Source: Asparagopsis taxiformis
Taxonomy: Eukaryota; Rhodophyta; Florideophyceae; Bonnemaisoniales; Bonnemaisoniaceae
NCBI GenBank assembly: GCA_030407315.1
Contig: JALQPE010000952.1
Location: 1 to 32,808, forward strand
Direction of reading: 5' to 3'
DNA: 32,808 nt
Positions 8,722 through 32,808 of this stretch are shown one piece after another (position 1 is the first letter of the stretch; each line of letters begins with the position of its first letter). The translations under genes and the position numbers were made by a program. The notes under the pieces are model-generated. The model had not been told where the DNA came from. It saw only the letters and a program-made list of their open reading frames with translations, and did no database searches.

Positions 8722-8765
8722 AGCCCTAAATTTTTAATTAACGTTTTAATTAAAAATTTAGGGCT
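8722..8765. repeat. Perfect 20-bp inverted repeat near the mariner right end
   Basis: Arms 8722-8741 and 8746-8765 are exact reverse complements (left arm starts AGCCCTAAATTTTTAATTAA) around a 4-bp spacer. A second, overlapping inverted pair is AACGTTTTAAT (8740-8750) and ATTAAAACGTT (8766-8776). Confidence 0.95.
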
Positions 8766-8804
8766 ATTAAAACGTTATTCTCTCGGTAGCTGTGTTGGAC
8801 TTTA

Positions 8805-11514: not shown

Positions 11515-11978
11515 TTTCTTGAAAGAATAATTTGCTCATGTTTTGGTTACAATCGAGTTCTAAGAAAAACTGAAGTGTTACCTATTCAAGTTGAACAGGC
11601 TGAACCTTAGTCAGGAGAAATGAAACGAAAGTACTTGGATAATTAATAGTATGATTTGAGCCCTTATATTGCTGCCTGAAGAGGTTTCTGACAAGTGTTT
11701 AATTTCATGATATGTAAGTTAGGACACTTATTCCTCATTGATGAAATTAAAAATGTGCATTCCTGTCAGATTTCAGCTGTCCCAATCATTCTGCGTTTCT
11801 TGCGCAGTTCGTTCGGCAGACTAGGCCTTCACGTCGTCATTCGCACGATATGTACGTGGTGGATGAAGTACAAACCCGGGCCAATGGTACTGTTTATCTG
11901 TTTAGGAAATATCAATATTTGACAATAGATATTTTATTCGATGCCTCGCAAGACCAAAAGAAACGTTTTTACCTGAGA
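11515..11978. other. Spacer between two decayed minus-strand genes
   Basis: No coherent frame. A plus-strand frame at 11695-11922 has no motif and no continuation. Confidence 0.35.
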
Positions 11979-12612
11979 TTACAGTGAATGACCAGGACTT
12001 TTGGGCTTATAGCCTGAAGTTTTTTTGATAATCGGAAGGCAATGTTCTAGAGTATTGTCTGGCCAGGTTCCATTCCAATGGACGTAATGAGCCATAGATA
12101 ACGTGTCTGAATACTCAAGTTTCCAGTACGACATGAAACCTATGCACCGAATATCAATATTCACGGATAGGTTTCCACCCTTTTCATCCTAGAGAATGCA
12201 TTCACCTTCCCGTAGTAAGCTTTCTGGTCCGCATAGTCGATAGAAATGGAATTTAGATTTATGCATAACTTCCCATTTGGGCTGGAAGCTTCTAGACAGA
12301 AAGATATTCTGGTGCTAAAGACAGAACACAGTTCTTTACAGAGTTCTTTTCTAATAAAATTTCTTGCAGGCCCTGTAAGAAAAGGAAAATGTACCCCTGA
12401 TATGCTTCTGATGAACCTCTTATGTACGTGATATCTGTACAATGCGCAAGAGATATTTTGCTGATGTCCGAGAGATGAGCGTAAGGACACCTCACGTCCA
12501 TCAATGGTGTATCACTATGCAGCCATCAGCTGAAGAGCGAATGTTTCTTATCCGTACTTCAGAGGAACACCACGGTTGTCATAGGTTCATCATGTGGCCA
12601 TCTTCCGTACAT
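11979..12612 (-). pseudogene. Decayed minus-strand gene of unknown family
   Basis: Coherent protein-like sequence runs from ATG 12612 (MYGRWPHDEPMTTVVFL, then a stop) through PLMDVRCPYAHLSDISKISL, HCTDITYIRGSSEAYQGYIF, then after a shift near 12290 through LNSISIDYADQKAYYGKVNA, and after another shift at an AAAAGGG run near 12180 into NIDIRCIGFMSYWKLEYSDT and AHYVHWNGTWPDNTLEHCLP, with a stop at 11979. There are two in-frame stops and two frameshifts. I recognise no family. It has the same strand and similar decay as the ParB-like remnant downstream, so the two may have come in together. Confidence 0.45.
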
Positions 12613-13351
12613 AGTCAAGTTCTACTGGTAGGATACTCACGTAATTTGAATAGATTCGCAGCGGATACTGGGTTTGAACTGTTCAGGTCATTTCTGGTCA
12701 AGATGCTTCTAGACAAAACGCAGCTCTGAGGCGAGAACCAGGAAAAATTTCTGTTTTACTTAAATTTCTAGCCATTTACAAACAGCATTTGAATAGCTTT
12801 GCAGTGGTTGCTGATCTCGAACAGGAGAAGGTGTGCACCTTTCCGTACAAGTACAAATGTTTCAGGAAATTTCACGGAACATTTAATAATTTAATTTTTT
12901 GAAATATCAATTATTTTGCTGGTAGCTTGCAGGCAGTGCGAGGTTATGACTAGTTTCAGAAGTTCCCTCTGCTAACAGAGCGAAGTATGATATCATCCGC
13001 AAAGAAATTAAATAGAAATTTCTATTTAATTGGTTCGCAGATGTTACCATATTTTGGGGAAGTCTGATCAGATGCACAGAAGCACCATGGAAGGTATTGC
13101 GAAAAAAAGACCAGCACAAAGTCCACCAGTACTTCCGCGTCTGTCACTACTCGTTCTACTATTGCAAAAAGGGACAGCGCTCGCCCAACTCTGGTTCCTT
13201 CCACACTAAGAAAGGATGTAAATCCAAGTTAACTCCAGACCAAGCTTTCTCGATTCAAGTTCACTATCTTTCGTTCCGTCCATGTTGCTCCATACGAACA
13301 CAGCAACGGCCTCTAAGCGAAGAGGACCGCAAAAGGAACCGAAATTGAAAA
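12613..13351. other. Stretch with no convincing gene
   Basis: Minus (13022-13204) and plus (13097-13348) frames overlap without motifs. The only clear structure is the 26-bp palindrome at 13006-13031. Confidence 0.35.
13006..13031. repeat. Perfect 26-bp palindrome
   Basis: AATTAAATAGAAA followed directly by its reverse complement, with no spacer. Confidence 0.95.
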
Positions 13352-13792: not shown

Positions 13793-15022
13793 GGGCGCCC
13801 GCTTCCGTCTCGCTTCCGTCGGCTGCGCAAGAAGGTCCCGCTCCGACACCGTGTGCGCGCTATAACAATCCGCTTGCGTTTCGATTCTTTCCGCGTGCGT
13901 TGCCGACGTGGTCGGAGTTAAGCCATCTTTATTTTCTCCGCGGTGCTTTCAATGGGACTGCATCGCCGACGTGAATCGCCATGTGCACATGACCCCATGG
14001 GGTTACCAGGCCATAGGAATGCGCAATGAGTATGGGACGCTCGAGGCGAATCTGTGCTTTGCGGTTTGGCGGTTCCAGAAAGCTTACCGTTCGACGCGTA
14101 TTTCCTCGAAGACGGGGCCGACGAACGGCTCGTACGCCACTTATCCAGGCTTCGCACGATGCTTCGCGACGAGTTCGCGCATATCGATCCTTAGGCAGCG
14201 GCGCCCAGCGCGGGTTTCTTGTTAGAAGGCGTAGTTTCTTGAAAAGATGTCGAAAGCTCAGCGCATACTCGTAGGACTTGACTGACGCCTAGACGTAACG
14301 ACTCAGGTAGCAGTCCAGACTTCTCAAGTAGCCTTAGCCTTCAGAGGGTCAGCTTCGCACTACTGGATTCTGTTAACCCTGAAGCGGTGAAGCTTACTCG
14401 CACTACCGACGACCGTCCCGCGGCCTTGAATCGGTGGGTGATAGAGCGGTTTGAACCGGTCGGATCTTGATCACCCTCAGAGGAAATCTTGTGGGCGGCA
14501 CGCGACTCCCATTGTTTCTAGGTCGGAGTCGGGTCACAGAGTAGTACTAGGTCGGATAGACAATCGAAAAGAGCGGCGCAACACTCCGGTCGTATCGATT
14601 CCAACTACTCACGCTCATGTGAAAGTTGAACCGTGATCAGCCTCACACGCACGGGTGTCATGTTGGCGCTTCCGTGCAACCCGGGGACCACGGTACGTTA
14701 CGCACTCGTGCGATAATGCGAAACGGAACAATCTCCACGGCCGGCCAGTTGACACCAACGTGAGAACAGTTTGTAGCATCCAGATCTGACCTGGATCTAT
14801 CCACTGGAGGTTTTGTTGTATTTTCTCATTGGAGATGGGTCACTACTTCTAAATGCGAACAGGGGCCGAGTGGTCCGTTCCAAGGGGCCCCATAGGGGGG
14901 CTGCGCCGGCGGCCGTTGTGGTATTGCAGTACTTGTACTACGATCAGTAGTCATACACGTGGCGCTCGTCGTGTTCGCATGCGCGCCCGCCAATTCTGCT
15001 TTATTTCGAAAATTTCTAAAAT

Positions 15023-17030: not shown

Positions 17031-17378
17031 TTGTTGCTGATGTCGCTTGATGTGGAAGGCCCTGTGGCACTAAGGTGTGAAGCTGGTCTGACGACGGTGG
17101 CGGACTATTTCGAGGCCGGACATTATGATCGTGCGAGTTTGTGCCATTTCCTACATCGTACCAAGTGTTTGATGAGCGTTTCTGACGGGGGCTCAAGTAC
17201 GGCTGCTCATCAGTCGCTAGCTACCGCTCAGACGAAAATCCGCGTCCTCAAAGGGAACAATCACCGCGCCCATGAGACCAAGCAAGCGGCCTTTGTGGCC
17301 AAGGCCACTACGGAGGCTGAATTTTTTACGCTTAATCGTCAGCTGGGGAACTATTCCTGTAAGGGATCAGTCTTTTAG
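17031..17378 (+). pseudogene. 3'-most coding fragment of the GC-rich block
   Basis: A 115-codon frame starting one base after the previous stop (GPVALRCEAGLTTVADYFEA, ASLCHFLHRTKCLMSVSDGG, TTEAEFFTLNRQLGNYSCKG). Composition returns to AT-rich immediately after its stop, so this is probably the end of the unit. Confidence 0.35.
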
Positions 17379-17384
17379 AATACA

Positions 17385-17780
17385 TGGTAAAAATATATTC
17401 CTGTTCTTACAGCACGATACCTGAACAACCAGTAAGTTAATAACATTCCACAGAAACCGAAGCTCCCAACTGCAAGGGAAGCTTGCAGTAACCACACCTA
17501 CGAGGCTACTTACAGCTTTTCGTACGCCTTACACTACCTAAAAGACACTTGAACAGGCTACTTACATGATATGATACATTTACAGCACCTTTCATGTGAC
17601 TGCCACGGTTACTTACAAGATTAAATGGTTTTTTCAGCCACTTTCGCCCTACATACAGGGCTACATTCATACGCCGGTATGACAGGATACCCACAACTGT
17701 AAGTGACGAAAACCTCGTTTTTTCAATGAATTTTCTACGGCAAGCTTACATGTAAGCCGCTCTGCAGGGCTCGGTCGCGC
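17385..17780. repeat. Degenerate repeat array, period about 52 bp
   Basis: GGCTACTTACA occurs at 17503-17513 and 17556-17566, GGTTACTTACA at 17607-17617, and a weaker GGCTACATTCA about 50 bp later. The intervening sequence is loosely similar from unit to unit (TACAGCACC, CACTTGAACAG). The array ends near a GCTTACATGTAAGC palindrome at about 17746-17759. Such arrays are typical of subterminal regions of DNA transposons or of minisatellites. No terminal repeat was found. Confidence 0.5.
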
Positions 17781-18032
17781 CCGGCTCCAAGTTTCCAGGT
17801 GTCAGGGGTTTCTGCCAACATCTTACACGTGTGACCTTGCTGGACTCCTACACATAGCCCTCCGTTTCATACTCTCCTCATAACAATTTCCAGATCCGCC
17901 ACCATCCAAAATATCTCCTGTGCTCCTCTCCTATTGGTTGATCTCCCGCTACCCGCTCCTTGTAGTTACCCTCCATTTCACCCCTTCTAGAGCTACCTCC
18001 TAATCTATATAAACCACCCTTCGCTCCCCACC

Positions 18033-18659
18033 TCAGGGGCTCGGAGGCTCCTTCGACCGGAACACCTCTTCTCCCGAGTTGTGCCTCAACTCCCACAATT
18101 CCAGTGAGTTGGACGCGGCCCGGGAGGAGCTCACGACTTTTCGCACCAAGTTGTTGATGAGCATGGACGTGCTGGCGCACTGCAGATTCTTGATGATATA
18201 GCCCGGAGGGGTAGCAATGTATCCTTTACCGTTCTCGCTCCAAAGTGTCCCTTCTACCGGCTCTACCTCGATGGTGCGTCCAGTCCAACGTCTCTGCGTT
18301 TGTTCCGCTATAGGTTCCAACTCCATAGTCTCGTTCTTGCACCACTTTGGCAGGTTCTCCTCAACTGCCCGGAGAACTCCAAGGTATTTCACAGGAATGG
18401 CTTTCTGTATTTTCGACTTACCGCCGCCGTGATCACTGCTCCTACCTGTTCCCGCAATTGCAGTGAGCCTGGCATTTTCCGCCTGCAGAGTCTTCACCTT
18501 AGCCTCCAACGCAACTATCTCTGTGCTGAGCGCCTTGTTTGCTATGTCGTGGCTGAACAATTTTCTTTCTAGCTCCGCGATCCTCTTCCTCTGCACATTG
18601 ATACGACTCGCCATGAAATCAGTGGATTCCGGTGGATGCATCCTCTCTGCCCTCACCGT
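18033..18659 (-). pseudogene. Split minus-strand gene, 3' part (coiled-coil segment)
   Basis: Minus-strand coding begins at the edge of the 6-kb insertion (18659) and runs to 18033. It starts VRAERMHPPESTDFMASRIN, then forms a probable coiled coil (RKRIAELERKLFSHDIANKA, STEIVALEAKVKTLQAENAR), a basic hinge (GGGKSKIQKAIPVKYLG) and a C-terminal segment with EGTLWSENGKGYIATPPGYI. Family unknown. Joined to the 5' part at 24723-25544 after removal of the insertion and a 2-bp duplication, the frame is continuous. Confidence 0.55.
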
Positions 18660-18709
18660 CCCACAGCATGAGCAAAAATGGCTATTTTTCCAGCCCAGAA
18701 TTTAGTTCG

Positions 18710-19240
18710 TACAGTGGTGAAAAACCAGGCCACGTCGCTGGTTGAAACGATCCCCAACCTCTGGATAAGCCCCATCGAATATTTTAATAAATTTGCTGGT
18801 GAAATTCCAGTGCTTGTAAAGTACGAGTGGCCTGGTTGAAAACCAGTTGTTTGGATGGTTTGGCCAGGGGGTACTGGTTTGCACCAGGCCACGGCGGTGG
18901 GTCGGACAGTGGTTATGATCCAGCGTACTGTGCTGGTTAATTTCAGGAGGTGATCTGGATTTTGACCAGCCAATGAAGTGGAGTATACCAGTTTTGGTGA
19001 AGGAATATGACCAGAGGGTAGGCTGGTTGTTGGCACAGTGAGTACTGGTTGGAAACCAGCACATCAGCTGATTGAAACCAGCCTATCCACTGGTTTTCAA
19101 CCAGACCCGAAACTGGTTTGAAGCAGTCGAAAGACTGGAATAATTCCATCGTCTGAAGGAGATTCTACCAATGTATACACAGGTTTTTTCCATCATATTG
19201 TATGGATTTTTGTTGCAGTGTAATGGTTGCAAACCAGCAG
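18710..19240. repeat. Left subterminal CTGGTT/AACCAG array
   Basis: I count about 14 exact CTGGTT or AACCAG hexamers in both orientations, several paired as back-to-back inverted units (for example CTGGTTGAAAACCAG near 18832-18846 and CTGGTTTTCAACCAG near 19090-19104). Such clustered inverted motifs are typical transposase binding regions. Confidence 0.75.
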
Positions 19241-20534
19241 TGTAGATGGATTGTAGTACTGATTTGACTGGTAAAGTACCATCAAAGAAGGTGGTTGAAG
19301 GGCTGGAAGGACGGAAAATTAATTTACCACTGGACGGGATGGAATGGATAGGGTGGGAGACGCCACTATTCTAATCATAGGATCTATAGGATGGGAAGTG
19401 TAGGACAGATAAGAACTGAACATATGACAGATTGGTCATGTCGACCAGAATTACATCTTCTTCCTGGTAGGGAAGGGGACTGCAAGTTTATTCTAAAGAG
19501 CGCTGAATTAAAGTACTGATAGTACTACCATTTCTACTCTACAAAACTGTTATCTATGTACTGTGAACTGTAGAAAACTAAAGCCTATGTCCTATTTCGG
19601 AGTAGAGTAGAGACGAAATAAAGTATGGAGATGATGAATAGAGGAAAAAGTTAGAAATTGAAATGAACCCATAGCGATTGAAGAGAAGATGAAAATACGT
19701 ACCGAAAGGGGAGCGGGAGGGGAGAATGAGAAGAAAGAACCGAATTATGGGAGAGAGAAAGTCTGTTAGTATTTGTTGTAGCGTCTTGGTCAGAGTAGAG
19801 ATGGAGAACTTACATGGTTACATGGGAAGGGGGAGGGAATTGAGAAAGCAGAAGGAGATCCCCTATAGGGGAAAAACCTGGTTGATGACGAGAGAGTGTG
19901 ACGAGAAGAGTGGAAAAGAGTGACGGTAGGCGCTTAAATGTCGACAGAAGGTGCCCGTGGCGGTCAGAAACGACGCTTGGCACGACGCTAGGCGAGACTA
20001 AAGCGCGCACTTTTTTCTATTTCAAAAAATGGCGGACAATTGTGCCGCACAGCAAATGAAGACTTCCAAGATGGTCACAAATCTTACAGCGCACCATGCG
20101 CCGTGAGTACAGTGAAAGAACAAAGATGTTCAGAGAATGAGAATGAAATCAGAAGGATAAAGTCGAAAGGACGCGGTATGGAATATGTGTAAAGAGGGAT
20201 GTACAAGTAGTGGTTAAAAAGCACAAAAGATATTAAAGTGTAAGCACGTATAGATGGAATGAGTTATTATCAGGGAGCAGAGCAGAAAAGACTTTCACGT
20301 AAAAGATTTAATGTTTTGATGTTGTGTGAGGTGGGAAAGTAGAGAAGGGCACATAGATTGTTAGCAATATATAAATTTATATGAACAATATTGTACCGAG
20401 TAGTAATAGAAAGCTAGCCTGCCCTCGGAGGGTGTCTATTTCCTCTAGTGGTGATAGAAAAAGGTCCGCCATCGAGGAAAAATGGACCACCATGTGTAAT
20501 AGAACGAGTAGAAAAGTTGACGGAGCATATATGC
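19241..20534. other. Non-coding interior of the 6-kb element
   Basis: Purine-biased sequence with no coherent frame. Short frames (for example 19726-19923) have no motif or continuation. Confidence 0.4.
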
Positions 20535-21244
20535 TCTCATCCACAACTGTACTGCTGAACTATAGTTCAGGAGTACAGTTCTGGATGAGACAGACCTTTC
20601 GAACACCAGCGGTAAGAGGCCGAAACCAGCTTCCCATGAGCTTCTGTACCTCGCATTCTCCAGATTCATACTTTGAGACAGGATAGACTAGCGCACATGG
20701 ATGTAGAGGATATGAAACGGTATCGGAAGCAGTAGTCTGATCGGTTCTCTGTTCTCGAAGAAATACTTCCAGGACTATCCAGAGTGTAGGATAAGATGAC
20801 ATGGAAAGAACAGGAGTCGATCAACTCCTGTTCTTTCCATGTCTTCGAAGACAGAAACCGGCAGCACGCCTGAAGGACAGAACCCTTTGTGACCTCATCA
20901 GGTTTAGAGCAATCACGGAAAGCAGAAGTACTGGAGGTGCCGGATGTTTGACCGTCCGGTACCTCCAGTACCAGTTGGTCAGAAGAGGTCCACCGGACGC
21001 CTTTGGCGAGATACCCGAGAATATTCTCAGGCAAATCTACTTCTCATCCATATGGATGAGAAGCTACTCACTACTAGTAGTTCTGCTTGCACATTCGTAA
21101 ACAGCTGTAGAACTGGAGAGCTTCACCGTCACCCACGAGTAGTGGTTGTATAGGGAGAAGAAGCACGGGTGGAAGGATGTGCAAAGATGATTGAGAAATG
21201 GGTCAACGATAGTGCACCATGGTGCACTATCGTTGACCCACTTC
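20535..21244. repeat. Cluster of five near-perfect palindromes
   Basis: 20535-20590 (56 bp, two mismatched pairs); 20798-20843 (46 bp, one mismatched pair); 20928-20971 (16-bp arms with one mismatch, 12-bp loop); 21040-21063 (24 bp, perfect); 21199-21240 (42 bp, perfect, extending to 21195-21244 with one mismatch). The arms share no common sequence, so they are independent inverted duplications rather than copies of one repeat. Confidence 0.9.
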
Positions 21245-21360
21245 ACTAGAAAACCAAGATACCATATTGGACACTGGTTTACTTGAGACACACGCTTGTC
21301 CAGGAAGACGAAGAGAGGGGCAATACCCCGTTCGGAACCTCCTGACGCCGTTTTTTCATA

Positions 21361-21950
21361 CTCGACTTAGTCGAGCAAAACTCAATCTGGGTAGCAAACT
21401 AGTCCAGATTGAGTTTTGCTCGACCAGTTCCGGTATGACAAATATTTGGCCCCTCTGCAGATTTCGCTCTAGTCTACGAATATGCTGGTAATTACAATGT
21501 AATTGAAGTAATTGCAATTACATTTTTTGGAGCACACTAGATTCTCGAGACCGACTCGCTGGCGAGATAATTAATTTCCGTAATTAGTAGTTGAAATTGA
21601 CACTCAATAGCGAGTCGCTCTCGAGAATATAGTTTGCTCTAAAAAATGTAATTGCAATTACTTCAATTACATTGTAATTATCACCATATTCGGAAACTAA
21701 TTGCAATTGAGTGTCAATTCCAACTACTAATTACGGAAAGTAATTATCTCGCCAGCGAGTCGGTCTCGAGAGTCTAGTGCGCTCCAAAAAATGTAATTGC
21801 AATTACTTTAATTACATTGTAATTACCAGCATATTCGTAGACTAGAGCGAAATCTGCAGAGGGGCCAAATATTTGGCATACCGGAATTAGTCGAGCAAAA
21901 CTCAATCTGGAAATCAAGCAACGCCGGATTGAGTATTGCCAAACTAGTCT
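21361..21950. mobile_element. Foldback element with nested inverted repeats
   Basis: The main arms, about 21426-21607 and 21708-21888, are reverse complements over about 182 bp with roughly ten mismatches. The centre (about 21610-21694) is a third copy of the inner arm in the right-arm orientation. Each outer end has its own hairpin. On the left, GTCGAGCAAAACTCAATCTGG (21370-21390) and its exact complement lie at 21404-21424. On the right, the same unit is at 21890-21910 and a diverged complement near 21924-21945. No frame. It sits upstream of the element's own gene, so it is probably a non-autonomous foldback/MITE-type insertion. Confidence 0.8.
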
Positions 21951-21985
21951 TTGAGCTGTAACGTCCATCCATAGTCACCTACAAC

Positions 21986-23710
21986 ATGTCTGCTAGTCCT
22001 CCAGCCTCACCCGCTTTGGATGCGACGCCTATGCTCTTTGCCCCTCTCCACACCATACAATTCCGTCATGCCTCCTCCCAACGAAAACAACGACCTGCTC
22101 TGCGAAATAGAAGAGATGTACTCCGCACTTCTTCAACGGTTTCTCGCTCCTATCCATGATGGATTGGCCGCTTTGCGCTATCTAGCTTCAATTCTAGAGG
22201 GTACCAACACGCGTGGCGTTTCATGCCGGGACCACGGTCCCGACATGCACATTGCTTGCCAGGTCGTGAACAGCATTTTCACCAACAAAGCCACCGTCTC
22301 CCGCTTTGTAGCTCACTGCACCATAAAGGAATTGGCGAGGACTGGCACTCCGTTCGAAAACTCCTCTGCAAACCCTTCTGAACCTTCCAATTCATGTCCA
22401 ACTCTGCTCCTCGCCGCGTTGTCCTTCTCCCAATTCTCTTCCGCCCCTTCAGACACCACACAGTCCAAGCGGTCCCTCATCACCAGCCCTGTCGGGAAGA
22501 AACACGTCTACCTTCAGCGGTCCATCGCCGGCTCTGCTTTCTTGTCGATGGCCAATGACCACATCGTTAGGTGGAAGGATTCTACCATGCGCACGGCAGG
22601 ACTAGCAGACCCTGGAGAAGAAGATGACCTTAAAATGTCGACAGAACTCCGCAGCTATCCACTTCGCAATGCGACTGTTGTGCCTCTGAACAAGCCCGCC
22701 TGGGTGCGCCTCCCATCTCATGCTCTTCGCGAAGCATTTGCTCTCGCGATGCCTACCGACGAAGACAACCTCTTCGTGCCCCCTTCAAAGCGGAAAAGAC
22801 TATCTACCGACTCCGACATGGAATCCATTCAAGCTCCCTCACCCTCGTCCCCCACTTTCAGAAATTCCGGTCTCGCTCCCGCCGACACTGCACCAGTTCT
22901 AATCGCTACTTCCGCGCTGCGTGCACTCACAAAGTTCTTCAACAACTCCAGAAAGACTGTGAAACTGGAGCTCCTCAAATCGTCCTTCTTTCTTCTCCAC
23001 CAAGACTTCGGCGCCGCTCTCCTCGAAAATCCTGCGAGCAGAAACCATGGCTCGTTCATGACTGGAAGCAATGAGCTCCCCATTCGTCCCCCGATTCCAT
23101 TCCGACCACAACGAGAGCGTACGGAAACAGTGCCGAAGCACACAAAGTTTATGAAGAAAACGACAAAATCTTCAACGCTTTCACACTCGGCTGTGAGGAG
23201 CTCATGGTTCAGCTCACCTATACAGTTTCCGTCACAGACACAGATGCTGTCTCCTCATCCCCCAGTACCTCAAAGCAGAGAAAAGCGGTGATAAAATTCT
23301 CCTTCCTCACTACTGCCATGATTCTTCTCAGCAGTCTCACTCAGTGCAATCAACGTCACATTCTCTGTTACAGCACGCAAAGTATTCTCGCCGCTTACAA
23401 AATTGCTCTATGTTTGAAGTCCCTCTTCTGCACAATGCTCAATGCAGAATATTATGCAGAAGATGGCTTCCCATGTGTTGGACATCACGGCTGCCTCGAC
23501 ATTCGCGACTACATCCCGGGTGGCGAGCTACTCTCCAGTTTGATTCGGAAGAAGAGGAACGTATCTGCCCATGAATATGAGACCATCAAATTTGATGAAT
23601 CTAACCTTCACTCTACGGCGTCTGAGGACCCCAATCCTTCCTGCAACGCCACAGAAGATTTGCAACCTCTCTATGAAGATGAACAGCTTGTAATATCCCT
23701 CGTAAAGTGA
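21986..23710 (+). pseudogene. Gene carried by the 6-kb element, unknown family, frameshifted
   Basis: An ATG at 21986 (MSASPPASPALDATPMLFAP) leads, after a one-base shift near 22055-22060, into a long frame to 23291 (the next ATG in that frame is 22068, MPPPNENNDLLCEIEEMYSA). Visible features are VNSIFTNKATVSRFVAHCTI, a basic NLS-like PPSKRKRLS near residue 255 and low-complexity Ser/Pro regions. The downstream frame 23204-23710 is also coding-like, and its reading extends upstream of its ATG to about 23070 (SAEAHKVYEENDKIFNAFTL, GCEELMVQLT). A frameshift or intron near 23070 is therefore likely, giving a protein of about 570 residues. A role as transposase or accessory DNA-binding protein is only suggested by location. 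Confidence 0.5.
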
Positions 23711-24299
23711 GTCTTGCCCCATACCTAGAGCTAGCTACTTCAAACCCTGCCGTAAAACTTTGTGTTTGTTGTCACCTTCATACTTAGTAAGTGCCCATTT
23801 TACTGCTTTCACCTCCTTCCTTCTACTAGCACCTTTCTACATCCTCCTATAAGAGATCTGGTGCATGCGAGCGGGCATATTGGTCGTTCAAAATCTATCT
23901 TGGTAACTGGAAGAATTGCGTTTGTACGGATCCGTATGCATACGCGGTGGAAGTAGTGGAATGCCAATCTGCATATATGCAGATTATGACCGCGATGCCA
24001 AACCATTTCCTGACCTACTGTACAACGTCAATCGCTCCACTCTTCATTGTAATTCCCGTGTTCACTCCGACCCCACCGCCCAATTCACCTCCCTTCCAGT
24101 ACTACAATACTATACTACCTATCAATTATTTCCTAGCTTTCTACCTTCTAACCTACCTCAACATAGGAAATTTCCCTCCTTCATGGCAACACCAGAATAT
24201 ATTCCAAGAAACAATTTCATACATGCACCTAGCCTACAAACAGCTCACCCCAAGACATTGCTCATGCGTAAGTTCATTTACACCATGTCCCACACTACA
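23711..24299. other. Non-coding sequence 3' of the element gene
   Basis: Pyrimidine-rich with overlapping motif-free frames. No repeat beyond isolated short motifs. Confidence 0.35.
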
Positions 24300-24708
24300 C
24301 CTACTGTAATGGAACCACCAGAACCAGCGAAACCAGCCTCCCAAACTAGTCCATGCACTGGTTTCAACCACCCTCCGTACTGTATCTGTCGCTGGTTTGC
24401 CATTCCCGTCATTCCATAGCCAAAATTAATAATTTCAATGGTTTTATCCCACCCCCGCTGGCCGTCAGCGAATGGACGGGCGCAAATCTAAAACCATCAA
24501 AAAAATCATACCCAACTACAGTACAGAACCAGCCTTTCAGCCTGGCCTGACCAATGGTTTCCTCTGATTTTTTTCCATCCCATTTCTCTACTGTATCCAG
24601 CCACGTCTCGTGGTATTTTTCCAATAAAATTTATAAACTTTGCTCTGGCCGGCTATTCCATCGAAATCTACAGGTTCAAACCAGTGAAATCAATGGTTTT
24701 CTCAAAAA
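24300..24708. repeat. Right subterminal CTGGTT/AACCAG array
   Basis: About six exact hexamers in both orientations between 24315 and 24690, plus near matches (AATGGTTT, AACCACC), next to the right terminal repeat. It mirrors the left array but is less dense. Confidence 0.65.
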
Positions 24709-24722
24709 TTGCTCATGCTGTG

Positions 24723-25544
24723 CCCCCCATCTCGCACACCATCGGGAATATGATTTCCTCGATCGGCAACAATCGGTCCCGGCGCTACGCGCATATTTGG
24801 CACCAATGACGGTCTCTTGTGACAAGGCGCGCACTCTGGCTGCTCTCTCCCCTGAGTACCACCTGTCCGCCGATAATGGTTTGCCTCCTGTGAACGTTGC
24901 TGAGGAAAAACATCCCTTGCACCTATCCTCGGGTCCCTGACTACATTGCCGGCTGGAGCTGTGGTAATCGGTGTACGTTGCGCAGCGGGTATCACAGCCT
25001 CCAGCGCCTCGGGAAGCCACGGCTGGGAAGCCGCCCGCACCACGTCCGCAGCTGCCGACCCGACAGGAGCTACCTTTTCCATGGCACTCTGCCGCAATAC
25101 CAACATGTTTTGAGCCACGATCATGTCATCATCATGTTTTTCACTCTCCGTGTGGGCACGCTTGCTTCGGCCAGGCCCCATATCTCTCCGCGCCTTTCCC
25201 CCTCCCGTACTTTCCGGCTGCGGATCCCCATTTTTGCGCCGGTCCATGTTGCGACTACCGGACTGCGGTTCAGTGCTGCCGGCAGGCCCAAACCGTTTCT
25301 TCGCGCCGGATAGTCGGGCGCTCGATGCAGCCGCTGTTGACCGGATTTTCTGGAGGCCTGGAGGCTTCGGAACTTTCTTCCCCAAACGCGGCGGCATAAT
25401 GAAACTTTCCCCGAAGCGATGGTACAATCGGATTGCACGAGATACAAAAAGATTTCTGTGTAGTCTCGGTACCCACAACGGTCTGCCCTGAACGTCAGGA
25501 TAAGTAGCGAGGTATACTTCAATAGCGGAGGATGCATACATCAA
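24723..25544 (-). pseudogene. Split minus-strand gene, 5' part
   Basis: A minus-strand frame is open from 25544 to the edge of the 6-kb element. ATGs at 25541 and 25397 (MPPRLGKKVPKPPGLQ) are both possible starts. The basic, Pro/Ala/Ser-rich sequence (KKRFGPAGSTEPQSGSRN, GGGKARRDMGPGRSKRAH) looks disordered and nuclear. The last host codons are DGVRDGG. The frame then runs 13 bases into the TIR and stops. No domain recognised. The combined gene with 18033-18659 would encode roughly 435-485 residues. Confidence 0.5.
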
Positions 25545-25629
25545 GCAGTCATCGACAGCGTGTAATGTGTTGCAATTACAGCTAGGCGACTATTTGGGGC
25601 TGCGGCGAGCACGCCTATGTCTGGAGGAA
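25545..25629. other. Short spacer between split gene and methyltransferase element
   Basis: 85 bp with no feature. It would hold the core promoter of the split gene if that gene starts at 25541. The methyltransferase element inserted immediately upstream. Confidence 0.35.
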
Positions 25630-25631
25630 GT

Positions 25632-25812
25632 CCTGATTTGAATTAAAATTTGGGCTATTCTCAAAAACATGCACATGTGAACATGTTTTTGAGATGGGGA
25701 TGTGCCGTACGGCACAATCGACCGCCGAAATCGATGTTTTTGCAATATTTTTTCTGCCCGAAATTGTAGAATTTCTTTCTGGTCTGGCCAGCAATGCATC
25801 TGAGCTGGACAT
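25632..25812 (+). repeat. Left terminal inverted repeat of the methyltransferase element
   Basis: Matches the reverse complement of 29580-29761. The inner part ends in GAGCTGGACATCC and carries GGACATCC-type motifs. Hairpin arms are 25660-25671 and 25682-25693. The palindrome is 25701-25716. Confidence 0.85.
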
Positions 25813-26146
25813 CCCCATGTCCAGTGGCCGTCCGGATGTCGCTCACCTGGTAGGCGTGATGCACCTGTGACAACCTATGTGACTGGCGGCCGAGCAGTAC
25901 AGCACTCAGGGGCAGGGAATCAAATTTTTTAAAATTTTTCTCTACCACGTATCCGTCACAACTTATTACCTACACCGGTTACGGGTTTCAAGACCTTTCC
26001 AGCGCTGTGCACCCGTATACTCTGTTCCGATCGATATCAAGCAGTGTTCCCCACGAAAGATTGCAAACGTCACGAGATACGTCGTCAAATTTGACTGTCT
26101 CGCCGAGCGGTCGCCATCCTGTACCGAATTTTCCACTCATTCCATT
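25813..26146. other. Leader between left repeat and methyltransferase gene
   Basis: No frame. It is expected to hold the promoter and 5' UTR. I see no convincing TATA box; AAATTTTTTAAAATTTTT near 25922 is the only AT-rich stretch. Confidence 0.35.
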
Positions 26147-29100
26147 ATGACGAACAAGCACAGGCGCAACAGCAATCCGATCGGTGACGACGCAACCGTG
26201 CCAATTCTGCGCGAACCCGCTAGCCCTTGGGAGGATTCTAGTAACATGGGTACACGTCGAAACGTAGGTCGCGCCGCCCGCGAAACTACTCTCGCTGGCA
26301 AAGACTTCCTCCGCCTCTTGCTGGATTTATTCGCCCACCCAAGTTTCGCAGACTTGGTGGACAAGCCGGGAGGTTTCACGTACGTGGACCTTGGCGCTTG
26401 GGTTGCGCAGGGCACGGAAGAACAATTTCTGGCGCTGCAAGGTCGACTCAGCATAGCCTTCAGCGGTCGTTCGAAGAATGCTGGAGTCGAGGCGGATGTT
26501 GCCGAAATCGTCATGGCAGAGATGAACGTTGAGCGAGCCAAGCAGATTGTTCGTCTGGCATTACCGATTGCCGAGTTTTCAAGACAGGATGAGCGTATCG
26601 GGCAATGGGTTGAGCACTGCATCCTTTCTGGGATCGTGCCGCAGACCTTCCTTATTGGATTAACATGCTTCCTTCGCCACTACAAGCGCCGCAGCGCGGG
26701 GAACCAAGCGCCTTCGGTCTTGCTCCACCGGAAACGTTCGAGGTCTTGATGTATTTCCAAGCGCTGTCTATCATCCGAAATCACAACAAGAACCTGTCGC
26801 GTCGCCGAATAGGCGATGCGGCCGAAGCGGGGAACGAAGCCGCACGCGTCCCAGCCCATCGGAAAAGCACTAATCGAGCTTGTTACGTGGTTCAAGTTTT
26901 ATACCATGCTTGGACCGATGTGGCCTTCGCCGCAAAGTTTTCCAGCTTCGAAGAATTGATGGCGCCGTACATCATTTTCAACAGCAGTGAACATTGGTTT
27001 GAGGTGCTCGATGACGGTCTATTCGCACCGATGGAGCAGAAACTAGATCTCTACCACGACAAAGCTCCCCTATCTCATCCTGACGGATATGATGGAAAAG
27101 TAGAAACAAGAACCAGCGCGCAGCACAGTGCATTTAGGTACCTTGTGAAGAAGTTCTTCGACCGGTTGCAGTTTCTTGTCGTCAACCCGGACCTGTACAC
27201 CTGGACGGAGTCCGACCGCTGGGGGCACTGGAAATATACTTGTCAAGCGGAAATCCGGACAAGCTGCCAGCGTACTTTGACACCCTCGACGAAGACGTTA
27301 TGGCTGTCCTCCGCCCGGCACCACAAGTCGCAGACGCAGAAAAGGTCCCCAAGCCGGTTGATGACACTCCCACTCGTCGCAACACAGGAGGGAGAGGTTT
27401 GGTTCCGTCGACAAGACACACAACCAGGCTTCAACTTGGGCCTGGGAGGACCAGTCTTACTGCCCAAGGGCCGTCTCCCCCGTCACCGTCACCCCATGCG
27501 ACAGAAGAGCAGGAAAGTGAAGGGCAGGCTCTCGCAAAGGACTTTCTTTCGAAAATGAGTCAGTATTGCCGGGTGTACGACGTCCCTTTCGAAGATTTGG
27601 TCAGTGCCGACGAGAGCCGAGAACACGTGCCCATCACGGGCAACGTTCAGCTCATTCTGACTGATCCGCCCTACAATGTTCGTCGTAAGAGGAACGATTC
27701 CAACTCTTCGTACGACAGGCTAACTGCAGAAGATATGCAGGCTAGCATCGAAGTATTTGACGAGCTGTTGCGCCCCGGTGGCCACGGCATCGTGTTCTGC
27801 TCCGTTTTGCAGTTCTACGAATGGTTCCATTACTTGGAAACGTACAAAGGACCGCAGTCAGAAGGCCCAACCGATGATGCTGCCAGTGATGACGGGTCGG
27901 ATGAAGAAGAGGTTACGTCCATGAATTCGGACTTCGAAGCATCGCAGCACAGTGGCGAAGAAAGTGCGAATGAGGGGGAGGAGGAGGAGGACGTCGTTCG
28001 GAATTCAGTTTTCCTCGTTGACGAGGTACCTCTGTTGTTTGTCCGATTACCTGGGCACCTCTATCAAATGCCGGGGCGGAAGAGGTACCAACGCATGAAC
28101 ATGGCATAGGTCGCTATCCACTTCTGGAAGCGAGGTGTTCCGTTCAAGACCGGAAGCGAGATGGTGGCCTATAGGAACCACGGATACATGGACGGCACGT
28201 ACCCGGCGTGGTGCAACGTCACCATCAATATGCCCGCCATCGATTCGAATGAGATGGTGTGGCGAACAAGGAGCACAACCGGTGCTACGGTCAGAGTTCG
28301 TGCAGAGCAGAAGAGCGTCGCTCTCATGATGGAGTTGATCAGCCAGCATTCACAGCCTGGTGATATTGTTGTCGATCCATTCTCTGGCACTTTCGCAACG
28401 GGAAAAGCAGCTATGAGCTTGCCTGAGCACCGTGTTTTCGTCGGCAGTGACATGGACAAATTGTGTGTGGCACGATCGCTTCCAAAGCTGTCTGCAGTCA
28501 TTCCACGTGTAATTCTTTCAAACAACACTGACATGAGGGTCACGACAGAAGCGAAACAGTGTGCTGAGAAGTTCTTGGCGTCCCCCTCTGTCACGATGCG
28601 TACACAGAGGGAACGCAGGATCATCGAACCCCCACCTGGCCTTCCCCTGTACCAGAGGTTCCCGAAATATATTCGGCAGTACCTCTGGCAGCTGTGCCCA
28701 GAGTCGATTGCGTCACAAGAACACATGGAAAAACCGGTACATTATTGGCCACTTTCCCTGCGCCGCTGGTTGCAAACTGAAAACCCTCGCGTGATGCGGG
28801 CACACGATTGTGTTGCGAAAAAATTGAGCGTTCGACCATCGCTGATTAAGCATCCAAATGCAGGAAGAGGGCTCTTCGCTGAACAGACATTTAATGTTGG
28901 CGACGAAGTATGTGCATACTACGGAACTGTTGTGTACTCTGATATGAGCAAGGAGTCGATGAGGTTCGCGTACGGAGAGGGTCACATGGCGATAACGAAG
29001 GAAACATTCTTGATGTATGCCATCAAGCTGTATGCAACAGCGGAGGACGACGAAAACATCGAGCATCCTATTTGGATTGTTACGGCTCCGTTCTGTTCGG

Positions 29101-29336
29101 CGCAGTTCATCAACGACCCGCGGTATTTGCGAGGTGAGGACACTCCGGCGGAAGACACCAGGCGGATGGCCAACGTCGAGTTTGTCGAGAACTACAGCAG
29201 CGGTTCGACGGGGAAGAAGCTCAAGGCGAAGGACCTAGAAAATCCGAAGATCATCGTAGTACGTGCAATCCGCGATATCCGTCCAGGGCAGGAGCTCTAC
29301 GTTCATTATGGGACAGCGTTTAGAGCATGGGAGTAG
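26147..29336 (+). pseudogene. DNA amino-methyltransferase fused to a SET domain, three lesions in this copy
   Basis: Start ATG 26147 (MTNKHRRNSNPIGDD). The N-terminal part of about 370 residues is unrecognised (FLRLLLDLFAHPSFADLVDK; ETFEVLMYFQALSIIRNHNK). The methyltransferase core has motif IV LILTDPPYNVRR (27655-27690), an acidic insert (DDGSDEEEV; NEGEEEEDVV), then motif I GDIVVDPFSGTFATG (about 28359-28403). The order IV before I and the preceding RAEQKSVALMMELI are typical of beta-class N6-adenine/N4-cytosine DNA methyltransferases. The second Gly of the FxGxG loop is Phe here. From about 28840 a SET domain follows: NAGRGLFAEQTF, VCAYYGTVVY, AQFINDPRYL in place of the usual NHS box, NVEFV, and PGQELYVHYG at the C-terminus. 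Lesions are an apparent one-base loss at GGGG 26698-26701, another at GGGGG 27221-27225, and an in-frame TAG at 28107-28109. If these are repaired or are sequence errors, the protein is about 1060 residues. Confidence 0.75.
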
Positions 29337-29579
29337 GGTCACGAAAGCCGTATTCATTTCGACTAGGAAAAAAGCAACGTTCCAGAGTAGAAGTATATCA
29401 TATAATGCAGCCTGTCCAGCCACCATCACCCTAGGGTGAAACCTATTCACCAGTACTCGCCTTCAAAAACTAGTCCTTCACACTCCAGGTGCACTTCGTC
29501 CGAGCAGCGAACCTGCCTGCTTGGTTGCTGCAATGCGTGCAGGTGCACAAGAGACGACCAACCTGAAATGGACGTCCGG
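29337..29579. other. 3' flank of the methyltransferase gene
   Basis: No frame. From about 29480 the sequence is shared with 29920-30040 (GGTGCACTTCGTCCGAGCAG and neighbours), so it is part of the element's subterminal region. Confidence 0.45.
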
Positions 29580-29761
29580 TGGATGTCCAGCTCGATTGCA
29601 TTGCTAGTCGGCCCAGAGATTGTAGAATTTCGGGCAGAATAAAAATTGTAAAAAAACATTGATTTGGGCGGTCGATTGTGCCGTACGGCACACCCCCATC
29701 TCAAAAACATGTTCACATGTGCATGTTTTTGAGAATAGCCCAAATTTTAATTCAAATCAGG
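29580..29761 (-). repeat. Right terminal inverted repeat of the methyltransferase element
   Basis: Reverse complement of 25632-25812. The palindrome is 29677-29692. GGACGTCC at 29570-29577 and GGATGTCC at 29581-29588 lie at its inner edge. It ends CAAATCAGG at 29761. Confidence 0.85.
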
Positions 29762-29763
29762 GT

Positions 29764-30471
29764 GTGTAATTTGGCCACAACGGTCCCAGAACCCGGTCGG
29801 CGCCCCGAGCGGGGCCATCACCACCTTCTGTAAGCACTGACTGTAAGCCAATATCCCGTCTCACGTGGGGTCCATTCCAGGCTCTATATCAAAGAGACCC
29901 AGCCATCATGGGCTTCATACCACATGCACTTCGTATGAGCAGTGAACCCGACTGCTTGACGGCTGCATTAGGTGCAGGTGCGCAAAAATCGATCAACCTG
30001 AAATGGACGTCCGGTGGATGTCCGGCTCGATTGCATTGCTGGCATGCACAGAAATTTTAAAATTTCCAAAATATCAATTTCTGGCCCAGCATCTCCCGTG
30101 CAGAACATGCCTGCCCTTATTTCTCGTGTACGTTTAGACGTGTTTCTCACCCAAATGCAACCGAAAAGGCTTCAAAGAGCATTGAGCCCGCGCTGCTTAT
30201 GTACCGCGTCGTCTGAGATATCGAGTAGAGCTTGTTGCATAATAGCAGAACATGAGTCTGGTGGTGTGTAGAGTCCTTAGGGCGGGATAGGGATGTGGGA
30301 GGCCGTATTTTATGTATACAAATAGTCAGGGTTGGCAAAGCGAAAAGGCTGCTATGCGCTCAAACTTGTTTGAGATTGCATTGTAGAGAACATAATTACA
30401 TTGAAATGAAGTACTCGGGAGTGAGTGGAGATTGTGTCGGGCGCTGTTCGAGGAGTATTTGATCGATGTAC
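29764..30471. other. Gene-free region with a partial second copy of the element's end
   Basis: 29900-30045 is a direct partial copy of 29470-29605. The best block is 29994-30040 against 29559-29605: 47 bp with one mismatch, including GGACGTCC and GGATGTCC. After 30041 it diverges (AAATTTTAAAATTTCC-type). This is probably the right end of a related, diverged element. The rest, to 30471, shows no frame or repeat. Confidence 0.6.
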
Positions 30472-31770
30472 AATGGATGCGAAGGCTCAAGTGCAGCATG
30501 CGATATTTAGCAATGTAGTCGAGGGAAGGTCTCTGGTGAAGGAAGCGGAAAGGTATGGCGTGAAGCTAGGGTGCGTGGAAAGGTACTGGGAACAGTATGA
30601 TACGGGGGGCAGAAGGAGCGTGGTCAGCCTAGTTGGTATTCGAAGATACAGTTACGGCGGTGGCCGCTGGCTAAGGGAGAAATGGTACATTATATCTCGA
30701 TGTGTCGGGAGAGGAGGAGGGAGAGCTGGTGCAGGTTTTATGGACGACATATGAGAGGCGGAAGATTCTACTGTGGTATGAGGATGTGCTGCAGATGTGC
30801 AGGAGCGTTGTAGAGGGAGTATCGGAAAGGTGGCAGGAGGAAATTCCGTTTCGGGGGAGAGTTTCGTGGGGGACGGGGATGGAATATTTCTTGGGACGGT
30901 ACCGGCGGAAGTGAAGGTGAGGGGAAGGCGGCTTGGAGTGGAGCAGGGTGGTGATGACCATATTAGGCGGATTGCGAAGACGCTGCCGGGTGTTGGGGTG
31001 GTGAGGGCGGAGCACGTGTTACGGTAGCACCGTGGTATGGTGTGTTATAAGGCGCGGAGAGGAGGGTTGTGAGGAAAGTGAGAGGAAAGAGTCGGGAAGG
31101 GGTGTAGTGGCTGTTTCGGCGGTGGTGAGAGGGGATGGGGCGTAGAAGAAGGGATTCTTACGCTTTCGGAAGGAGAGGAGTAGGAGGAAGGGTGCGAAGT
31201 GGCGGGTTGTTTTGTGGTTTGGAGCAAGTGAGGGAAGGTGGGTGGGTGGTGGAGCGTGGGATGGTGGCTGTGGTGTATGCCGGATAGAAGATGTGGATGC
31301 CGTAGGGGTGATGTAGGAGGTGGGGGAGGGAGGGGTGGAGCTGGTAGGGTACGCAATGGAGAGTGAGAGGTTTTCGAAGAGTGAGCTTCTGGGGTAGTTG
31401 GTGAAGAAGGTGAGGAGAGAGGGAATTGACGAACAATACGTTGAAGAGGTGCCGGGGGGAGAGTCCAGACGAGGAGGTTGGGAGTGGTTTTTTTCCCTGT
31501 ACTCTGAGGGAGTATGAGGACGGTTTGTACGAAATCTGTACGGAGAGCAGAAAAGTAGGTATGCAATAGAGGTGTGCACCGTGAAAGTGCGGATGGGTAG
31601 CTGAAAAGGCGTGGTAGAGTGGTATTGGGGGTGTTTTTGAGGTACAGTACGGGGAAAATGTGCACGAACTGGAAGCGGGTGTGAGGGAGCAGTTGGAAAA
31701 ATTAAAGAAATTATGGGAGTCGGCCAGGAGGGGAAAAGAGAATAGTCACCGTGACGGACGCGGAAGTTAA
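30472..31770 (+). pseudogene. Decayed plus-strand gene with N-terminal helix-turn-helix-like region and C-terminal coiled coil
   Basis: Starting at ATG 30472 (MDAKAQVQHAIFSNVVEGRS, KEAERYGVKLGCVERYWEQY, suggestive of a DNA-binding helix-turn-helix). Coding-like sequence continues in shifting frames: EEEGELVQVLWTTYERRKIL, LQMCRSVVEGVSERWQEEIP, GDDHIRRIAKTLPGVGVVRA, VELVGYAMESERFSKSELLG, REGIDEQYVEEVPGGESRRG, GWEWFFSLYSEGV, and a final EAGVREQLEKLKKLWESARR ending at the stop 31768-31770. There are at least four frameshifts and several stops. The strand is G-rich, and a long open antisense frame (31019-31780) is Pro/Ser/Thr-rich and looks like its shadow. Family unknown. Confidence 0.5.
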
Positions 31771-31779
31771 TTTTGAACA

Positions 31780-32030
31780 CGGCGGCAGAAATTTCTGAGC
31801 CCGAAATTTTTGAATTTCTGAACCGGCGCCCGTCCTAGGTGGACCTAGACATGGTGGACGTCCATCCCCAGGAGGACATCCGTGGTACTAGAAACAATGA
31901 ATGTCGTCCTAGTAATACTAGACGTACTGGACCACATGGACGTCCGGCTCTAGACGGACATCCAAAAATACTGGAGAACATGGAAATCCGCCTAGTAATA
32001 CTAGGTGTACTAGAGTTTGTGGACGTCCGA
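31780..32030. repeat. Subterminal-like region with GGACGTCC and CTAGTAATACTAG repeats
   Basis: GGACGTCC occurs at 31856-31863, 31938-31945 and 32021-32028, and GGACATCC at 31874-31881 and 31956-31963. The palindromic CTAGTAATACTAG occurs at 31909-31921 and 31992-32004, about 83 bp apart like two of the GGACGTCC copies. The region just before it (GCCCGAAATTTTTGAATTTC) resembles the inner left repeat of the methyltransferase element. This may be the left end of another family member that runs out of the window. Confidence 0.55.
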
Positions 32031-32808
32031 GTCCATTTCCGAGAACACAGACGTTACCGGTATGATTCTCTCGCTCCACCTCTGCAAAAGTCCTCGGTGG
32101 CTCAGCCTGATGAAGACGTACTTCAAAGAATGGTGAGTCACCACAATACCCAGCGGAACTTTTCTGCTTAGCTTCTTCGTCCGGAATGATCTCAGCTTTA
32201 TGTGGATCAATCCAGACAAAGTCCCCGGCAGTACAATCCCTACAAGGAGAGCGGTTCACACATCTGCTTCGTTGATTCTGGTAACAAGGAAATCCACGCC
32301 AGTCAATGACTCGTATCTTGGCAGCGAACCTCTGAAGGTCTGCAACCCCATTTGGCAGGAGAGCGCCATTCATGGCGGGACCAAGCCGATCAAAGGCATC
32401 AAGGATTTTAGTCGGAAGCCACCAAAGCCTCCACGTATCGTACGCCTCCCATATGAGGTAGGAACCAACGCTAATAACGCAGGAAGTGATGACAACTACC
32501 CACCACCCCGAGCGGTTGTCGCTTGTGACCCTGGACCCAATATACGCCAATGGTGGGCCCATATCCGCCCAGAATCCACCGGGAACCTCCCACTGGTGCC
32601 ACCAACGGGGCAAAAGCATGAACCTACCTGGCAGATGTTTGGTTGCGAGGAGATTAACCTCAGTATTATGCCACAAGGCCAGTACCCCCGCCCTAGACCT
32701 CTTCCGCCTTTCCAGGCGTACTGTCGATGACCAAAATGTTAAGGTCGCCTTTTTCCGTGAACGATAGTCTGGAGGGAGCAAGGGAGCGTCGTCTGGAGAC
32801 TGCGTCTG
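31918..32808 (-). CDS. Hypothetical ORF, open to the right window edge
   Basis: A minus-strand frame is open from base 32808 to a stop at 31918, so the true start may lie outside. It contains WWHQWEVPGGFWADMG, one possible membrane segment (WWVVVITSCVISVGSYLIW, about residues 93-111 from 32781), LLPNGVADLQRFAAKIRVID and a Cys-rich stretch (RSRCVNRSPCRDC). The part before about 32050 overlaps repeat motifs and may not be coding. A shorter opposite-strand frame (32200-32730) is rich in Pro and looks less likely. No family recognised. Confidence 0.3.
   Translation of the reverse strand, partial: QTQSPDDAPLLPPDYRSRKKATLTFWSSTVRLERRKRSRAGVLALWHNTEVNLLATKHLPGRFMLLPRWWHQWEVPGGFWADMGPPLAYIGSRVTSDNRSGWWVVVITSCVISVGSYLIWEAYDTWRLWWLPTKILDAFDRLGPAMNGALLPNGVADLQRFAAKIRVIDWRGFPCYQNQRSRCVNRSPCRDCTAGDFVWIDPHKAEIIPDEEAKQKSSAGYCGDSPFFEVRLHQAEPPRTFAEVERENHTGNVCVLGNGLGRPQTLVHLVLLGGFPCSPVFLDVRLEPDVHVVQYV

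What the first reader, a model, noticed from the sequence alone, without database searches (positions are those of the whole stretch)
25630..29763. A mobile-looking element whose only gene fuses a DNA amino-methyltransferase to a SET domain
Seen: inverted repeats of about 180 bp at both ends with hairpin modules, GT on both flanks, and one gene with DPPY (motif IV), a motif I-like DPFSGT loop and a C-terminal SET domain. Known: beta-class DPPY enzymes methylate adenine N6 or cytosine N4 in DNA, and SET domains methylate lysines, usually on histones. Retroelements with captured cytosine-5 methyltransferases are described, but I know of no TIR element encoding an amino-MTase/SET fusion. Inference: the element may write two chromatin marks on itself or on host DNA, or may have lost its transposase and kept a chromatin-modifier cargo. 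The N-terminal 370 residues could be a new DNA-binding or transposase domain.
Basis: partly seen in the sequence, partly recalled or inferred. Interest (0 to 1): 0.87.

Follow-up and report, generated by a model that had tools for sequence, protein, structure and literature searches.

The report
Jumping gene carrying fused chromatin writer
One unnamed eukaryotic genome holds 968 sites matching a gene that belongs to a 21-kilobase jumping DNA element and joins a DNA-methylase-type domain to a SET domain, the type that modifies histones; the protein is predicted to mark the element's own DNA and chromatin, which would likely help it escape silencing.

Summary
The fusion is real; the 4.1-kb "element" is not the mobile unit. 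In the window's own genome (141.5 Mb) a 29-mer of the methyltransferase motif occurs 968 times. The inverted repeats at 25631-29761 are internal modules: 27 of 38 analysed copies share the same further sequence on both sides. On contig C519 the true element is 21,262 bp, with inverted ends of about 47 bp and a TA duplication. Its unoccupied target occurs 402 times (one insertion examined). It carries four genes: A, ParB-like plus a probable 2OG-Fe dioxygenase; B, the methyltransferase-SET fusion; C, coiled-coil; D, a Plavaka transposase (PF18759, 2e-24). Of 38 analysed B copies, 21 are intact. Of 25 more distant relatives, 15 carry both Pfam domains. Structure and profile searches match beta-class DNA amino-methyltransferases and SET lysine methyltransferases. 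The window copy is a broken, rearranged derivative: gene A missing, gene-B unit inverted, frames disrupted. TET genes in Plavaka and SET genes in other DNA transposons are published; eight literature searches showed no amino-methyltransferase/SET fusion in a transposon. Function (anti-silencing dual writer) is inferred.

The parts
25631..29761 (+). Gene-B unit flanked by inverted modules; equals 8913-13042 of the C519 element at 96.8%; inverted relative to the rest of the window's element
25632..25814 (.). Left inverted-repeat module with palindromic hairpin (internal module, not an element end)
29581..29761 (.). Right inverted-repeat module with palindromic hairpin
26095..29333 (+). Gene B, methyltransferase-SET fusion; broken in this copy (three frames, in-frame TAG at 28107-28109); intact copies exist elsewhere in the genome
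27645..28460 (+). Amino-methyltransferase region: motif IV (DPPY), then motif I (DPFSGT), interrupted by the TAG
   Evidence: PF01555, residues 518-788 of the intact copy
28863..29312 (+). SET domain
   Evidence: PF00856, residues 252-401 of ORF 28110-29333
30959..32053 (-). Left-terminal region of the same element family (C519 element 1-1110, 80.7%); outer end = terminal inverted repeat at about 32007-32053
29515..30407 (-). Further left-terminal sequence and repeat modules (pieces of C519 element 1285-2157)
24723..25630 (-). Gene C, first part and its upstream side (coiled-coil protein; C519 element up to 13950), 84%
18178..18662 (-). Gene C, continuation (C519 element 13948-14432), 93%
18663..24722 (.). 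Stretch without a match to the C519 element that separates the two gene-C pieces (probably a later insertion)

Best explanation
[quoted passage not shown] Shown: ends, TA duplication and empty site (one insertion), four genes in the same order on two contigs, 968 gene-B sites, intact gene-B frames in many copies, and both domains in 15 of 25 more distant relatives. Predicted from fold and motifs: the methyltransferase half modifies the amino group of adenine (DPPY motif; cytosine N4 not excluded) and the SET half methylates a lysine. Inferred: both marks are laid on element copies and favour permissive chromatin; gene A (ParB-like fold plus a dioxygenase-like domain) would be the partner that binds the palindromic modules or trims the mark; the Plavaka protein moves the element. 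Recombination between the internal modules would explain the window: gene A lost, the gene-B unit inverted.
For: Ends: of 39 other scored places 33 stop matching within 7 bases of each other, none runs further; inverted ends at C519:90605 and 111866; joined flanks found 402 times unoccupied, reversed control 0. Cargo is integral: gene B 968 sites, gene A 929, controls 0; order A-B-C-D on C519 and C1653; 7 of 64 gene-B sites have exact-matching ends on both sides. Gene kept working: the 43 best-scoring places, of 4,135 candidates, give the whole 1,063 aa without stops; 21 of 38 analysed copies intact, 19 silent against 17 amino-acid changes, pN/pS 0.26, binomial p 7e-5. Fold: N6-adenine methyltransferase M.BceJIV 3e-9, SUV4-20 2e-5, MLL1 1e-4; profile hits to M1.HpyAVI (labelled DpnA there) 6e-15 and KMT2C 1e-5. 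Both Pfam domains in 16 of 26 proteins found, one of them 99% identical. In other eukaryotes 6mA marks permissive chromatin with H3K4me3 (PMC12695648, passages).
Against: No activity, expression or modification data. The TA duplication rests on one insertion; in the window the outer side of the left end reads TT and no second end was found. The window copy is dead and 17 of 38 analysed copies lack the intact frame. Intact copies are the top of the ranking, so their share is not a rate. Ten of 26 proteins have no SET match in Pfam. The cargo's effect could equally be silencing, as for bdelloid N4CMT (PMC8885841). The dioxygenase part of gene A was modelled with low confidence and matched no Pfam or NCBIfam family; the ParB match is weak. 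The substrate of either half is not shown.
Confidence: 0.55

Rival explanations
1. Self-limiting silencer: the fusion writes DNA and histone marks that shut down element copies and so caps damage to the host, like bdelloid N4CMT with SETDB1.
For: N4CMT deposits 4mC on transposons and is proposed to work with histone methyltransferases towards silencing (PMC8885841, passages); the N4CMT structure is among the fold matches.
Against: The gene is carried by the element itself at 968 sites with changes biased to silent ones, which fits a benefit to the element better. No repression data either way.
Confidence: 0.2
2. Transposition licence: methylation of the ends or internal modules controls when the Plavaka transposase acts, like Dam control of some bacterial transposons (recalled).
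For: Methyltransferase and transposase are co-linear in one element; palindromic modules repeat six times.
Against: Does not explain the SET domain; no methylation site known.
Confidence: 0.15
3. Ordinary host gene caught between two repeat copies.
For: In the window alone the gene sits between inverted repeats.
Against: 968 sites, shared flanks on both sides in 27 of 38 analysed copies, co-linear ends and transposase.
Confidence: 0.01
4. Endogenous DNA virus or virus-like element rather than a transposon.
For: Large multi-gene repeat; DNA methyltransferases are common in such elements (recalled); giant Plavaka repeats lie beside endogenous viruses in Amoebidium (PMC11244446, passages).
Against: No capsid or polymerase match among the four genes scanned against Pfam (the rest of the element was not scanned); a scan of viral contigs gave only 3 weak motif matches; short terminal repeats with a 2-bp duplication.
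Confidence: 0.04

Closest known systems
TET+ Plavaka and other TET/JBP-carrying DNA transposons of fungi (Kojima 2025, PMC12730594; parts 1, 3 and 4 of 7 and passages read)
   Same: Plavaka-family transposase, short duplication, captured enzyme that edits chromatin marks, proposed escape from silencing
   Different: Cargo here is an amino-methyltransferase/SET fusion plus a ParB-like/dioxygenase protein; termini CGTCTGTG..CACAGACG match neither published Plavaka type
HarbingerS and MuDR transposons with SET genes in Phytophthora (Kojima and Jurka 2014, seen only as cited in PMC12730594)
   Same: DNA transposons that carry a SET gene
   Different: Other transposase superfamilies; no fused DNA methyltransferase mentioned in the passages seen
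Plavaka giant repeats of Amoebidium (PMC11244446, passages)
   Same: Large intron-poor gene clusters with a Plavaka transposase
   Different: Many of those genes encode tyrosine recombinases, the repeats reach 50 kb and are highly methylated; no tyrosine recombinase match here and no C5-methyltransferase hit in this genome
Bdelloid N4CMT (PMC8885841, passages; PDB 8s9m)
   Same: Eukaryotic PF01555 enzyme joined to a chromatin-related domain; fold match
   Different: Chromodomain reader rather than SET writer; the passages seen describe it as a gene captured by bdelloids, not as transposon cargo
SETMAR (recalled; listing only)
   Same: SET joined to transposon biology
   Different: SET fused to a transposase in a host gene, no DNA methyltransferase

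Membership tests
Plavaka DNA transposons | Plavaka transposase domain (PF18759) | tested here: met
   2e-24, 86.9 bits vs cut-off 26.3, 1,037-aa open frame
Plavaka DNA transposons | Terminal inverted repeats and 2-3 bp target duplication | tested here: met
   Inverted ends; TA duplication and 402 empty sites, one insertion examined
Plavaka DNA transposons | Termini TGT..ACA (PlavakaA) or CATCA..TGATG (PlavakaB), as in PMC12730594 | tested here: not met
   CGTCTGTG..CACAGACG; so it is described as Plavaka-like, not filed as A or B
Plavaka DNA transposons | Acidic catalytic triad with C(2)C / H(3-4)H motifs | not tested
   Residues not mapped
Beta-class DNA amino-methyltransferase | PF01555 fold, motif IV (DPPY) before motif I | tested here: met
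Beta-class DNA amino-methyltransferase | DNA methylation activity and target site | not testable with these tools
   No reads or assay
SET lysine methyltransferase | SET domain and fold | tested here: met
   PF00856 29.5 bits vs 22.4; SUV4-20 and MLL1 folds
SET lysine methyltransferase | Lysine methylation activity | not testable with these tools
   No assay
TET+ Plavaka | TET/JBP dioxygenase | tested here: inconclusive
   Gene A shows a conserved HxD..QHAG..RYH pattern but no Pfam or NCBIfam hit and a low-confidence model there
ParB/Noc proteins | ParB N-terminal fold | tested here: inconclusive
   Top Foldseek hits Noc 0.006 and ParB 0.02, none at E<=0.001; no ParB hit in PDB profile searches
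Amoebidium-type giant Plavaka repeat | Tyrosine recombinase genes | tested here: not met
   No such match among the four genes of the C519 copy

The most novel reading that the evidence does not exclude
A DNA transposon that carries its own chromatin-state kit: a single dual writer that lays down DNA adenine methylation and a histone lysine mark, a ParB-type protein with a dioxygenase domain that nucleates on the palindromic modules or erases the mark, and a gene-B cassette that exists in two orientations between inverted modules (28 canonical against 17 inverted among 46 linked A-B pairs), so that the writer might be switched by inversion.
Probability: 0.25. Interest if true: 0.92.

Novelty: new variant of a known kind. 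Interest (0 to 1): 0.76.

Why it matters
Transposons are known to capture a demethylating or a histone-modifying enzyme. Here one mobile element pairs a DNA amino-methyltransferase with a SET domain in a single conserved protein, at 968 sites, in a genome where the one search for a C5-methyltransferase found none. It offers a direct test of whether mobile DNA uses amino-methylation of its DNA and histone marks together to protect itself, and points to a little-known prokaryote-type DNA methyltransferase family in eukaryotes.

Tried and rejected
Rejected: 4.1-kb element with GT duplications (flanks shared by other copies). Host gene between repeats (968 sites). Virus. Transposase-like N-terminus (no Pfam match; aligned with the family).

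Led nowhere: gene A homologue search over residues 140-1230 (none); a narrower one gave four relatives. PDB profile searches with gene A. Viral-contig scan with gene B. MT-A70 search: uninformative, no control rang. Host name: not found; genome-size search empty, Plavaka/ichthyosporean search gave no match to this genome in its listing. A review of eukaryotic adenine methyltransferases that might mention such fusions (PMC4738411) and a second work tried by DOI are not held, so novelty is bounded by that. Literature searches on novelty; I saw listings and opened four papers (PMC12730594, PMC11244446, PMC8885841, PMC12695648).

Dropped rows and limits: locus L020 (aligned stretch only 1.7 kb) was left out of flank, ORF and pN/pS counts, so 38 of 39 fetched copies. 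Of the 10 copies without the canonical left flank, in two (L022, L033) the alignment does not reach the unit's left edge. Pattern searches list only their first 100 places (all exact matches), so co-linearity counts use 75, 64 or 92 of 968 gene-B sites and only exact-matching ends. Fetched copies are the best-scoring ones (40 of 1,061 candidates scored), biased to one subtype. 'Intact' means an open frame from the MTNK start, at least 1,000 aa.
Full report
What the window shows. The inverted arms 25632-25752 / 29641-29761 (121 nt, 94% complementary, with palindromic stretches) are real. Between them the + strand carries PF01555 and PF00856 matches, but in this copy the gene is broken: it runs through three frames and has an in-frame TAG at 28107-28109.

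It is a high-copy repeat. The window is contig C951 of a 141.5-Mb assembly of 3,156 contigs. A 29-mer over methyltransferase motif I occurs 968 times with at most 2 mismatches, 481 on one strand and 487 on the other; the reversed control gives 0. I fetched 39 further copies. In 38 of them (one short match dropped) 27 show the same sequence beyond both arms, 10 lack the canonical left flank (in two of these the alignment does not reach the left edge) and 1 lacks the right one. So the arms are not the ends of the mobile unit.

True ends. On C519, 33 of 39 other scored places stop matching within the same 7 bases and none runs further. The inverted partner of that end lies 21.26 kb away; the two ends align over about 47 bp at 88%. 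The right-end pattern is found 2,731 times (up to 3 mismatches) and a left-end pattern 1,298 times (up to 1 mismatch), reversed controls 0; the two patterns overlap in sequence, so these counts are not independent. The C519 element is flanked by TA on each side; the flanks joined through one TA occur 402 times without the insert (up to 3 mismatches; the 100 listed places are exact). The target is itself a repeat, next to another ParB-like gene in L050. Only this one insertion was examined. In the window the outer side of the left end reads TT and a second end was not found.

Genes of the 21,262-bp element. A (-), a 1,430-aa stop-to-stop frame: ParB-like N-terminal part (Foldseek ranks Noc and ParB first, but weakly, 0.006 and 0.02) and a C-terminal part with a conserved HxD..QHAG..RYH pattern that looks like a 2OG-Fe dioxygenase, not confirmed by fold. 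B (+): the fusion, 1,063 aa. C (+): coiled-coil protein, not in one frame in this copy. D (-): Plavaka transposase, 2e-24. The order A-B-C-D recurs on C1653. Gene A's 29-mer occurs 929 times. Of 75 gene-B sites examined, 22 have a perfect right end in the right orientation within 14 kb, 18 of them at 9,452-9,931 bp (expected 9,575); 53 have none in the list of exact ends. Eleven other nearby end matches are wrongly oriented or upstream, four of these being inward-facing ends at 12.5-13.0 kb upstream. Of 64 sites, 20 have a left end upstream, 17 a right end downstream and 7 both; five of the seven span 20.0-21.3 kb, two have a much shorter left side.

Is gene B kept? The 43 best-scoring places (of 4,135 candidates) give the full 1,063 aa without stops. 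Of 38 analysed copies 21 are intact; their variants are 19 silent and 17 amino-acid changing, pN/pS 0.26, with 3 and 0 in the SET region; binomial p 7e-5. These copies are the best matches, so the sample is biased, and transition bias was not modelled.

A wider family. Twenty-six proteins were found among the 7,988 candidates scored: one 99% identical, 25 others at 26-37% over the searched region. Sixteen of the 26 carry both Pfam domains, ten only the methyltransferase. Motifs LILTDPPYNxRR, DxFxGTF, AGxGVFA, YYGTxVY, NDxRY and GEELxxDYG stand out in the consensus. A model (mean pLDDT 75.7, pTM 0.43) matches M.BceJIV, CcrM, M1.HpyAVI and bdelloid N4CMT, then SUV4-20 and MLL1. DPPY suggests adenine N6 rather than cytosine N4 (recalled rule); N4CMT and PvuII matches keep N4 possible.

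How the window arose. Relative to the C519 element the window's copy runs on the minus strand: left end at 32053, left-terminal sequence to 29515, gene A absent, gene-B unit inverted, gene C at 25630-24723 and 18662-18178 with other DNA between. The module occurs six times per element, five direct and one inverted, so recombination between modules would explain loss of A and inversion of B. Locus L045 shows such a junction: element 7976-13042, then, through the shared module, 7781-7108 inverted. Among 46 A-B pairs within 12 kb (44 of 92 gene-B sites) 28 are canonical, 17 have B inverted relative to A, 14 of these at 5,892-5,916 bp, and 1 has B on the other side of A; one site (C133, the L045 contig) is counted in both of the first two classes. 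Canonical spacing varies from 5.9 to 9.4 kb, 11 of 28 lying at 8,512-8,660 (expected 8,629). The uniform inverted spacing could mean one inverted lineage that spread or repeated recombination at the same modules.

Mechanism. Shown: mobile element, integral fusion gene, selection-like pattern, conserved motifs. Predicted: amino-methylation of DNA and lysine methylation. Inferred: self-marking that keeps copies permissive. In other eukaryotes 6mA lies in permissive regions also marked by H3K4me3 (PMC12695648, passages), and the best SET sequence match is KMT2C. A C5-methyltransferase search found none here (six frames without regard to introns, no candidates at all; the 10 of 14 controls that rang are prokaryotes), so a 5mC-erasing role like that of TET transposons is less obvious. 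Silencing and transposition-licence rivals stay open.

Comparison. Kojima 2025 (PMC12730594, parts 1, 3, 4 of 7 and passages) reports TET/JBP genes in 11 DNA transposon lineages including Plavaka and cites SET genes in HarbingerS and MuDR elements; PMC11244446 (passages) reports giant Plavaka repeats in Amoebidium. None of the passages seen, and none of the listings, showed an amino-methyltransferase/SET fusion in a transposon; most listed papers were not opened and a key review is not held. The element has the Plavaka transposase and a 2-bp duplication but neither published terminal type. Verdict: new variant of a known kind.

Noticed in passing
L050:792-2381 and L050:4125-7280 (minus strand): Two further genes with ParB-like 'DGSHR' stretches, the second with a dioxygenase-like end, directly left of the C519 element; the insertion lies beside the second, in the repeat that supplies the 402 empty sites.
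   Followed up: partly
G000:C2475, 113920, 124582, 135247: Three gene-A copies about 10.66 kb apart in the same orientation: a tandem array.
   Followed up: no
window 10806-11264 (-): ORF with a 'DGIHR' stretch and a weak GmrSD_N match (0.006), perhaps another ParB-like gene.
   Followed up: no
window 1978-2775 (-): ORF with a weak Ulp1 peptidase match (0.034, below Pfam's cut-off).
   Followed up: no
window 6331-7276 (-): Two overlapping frames, one with a DDE_3 transposase match (3e-5, below Pfam's cut-off).
   Followed up: no
window 3-824 (+): Frame that reads like the end of a copia-type polyprotein (recalled; no Pfam hit).
   Followed up: no
window 17200-18700: A copy reported as 100% identical lies at C715:46238-47737, whereas the other 38 listed places share only about 487 bp.
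   Followed up: no
whole genome G000: No C5 DNA methyltransferase (PF00145) match in six frames, though 10 of 14 control genomes (prokaryotes) rang.
   Followed up: partly
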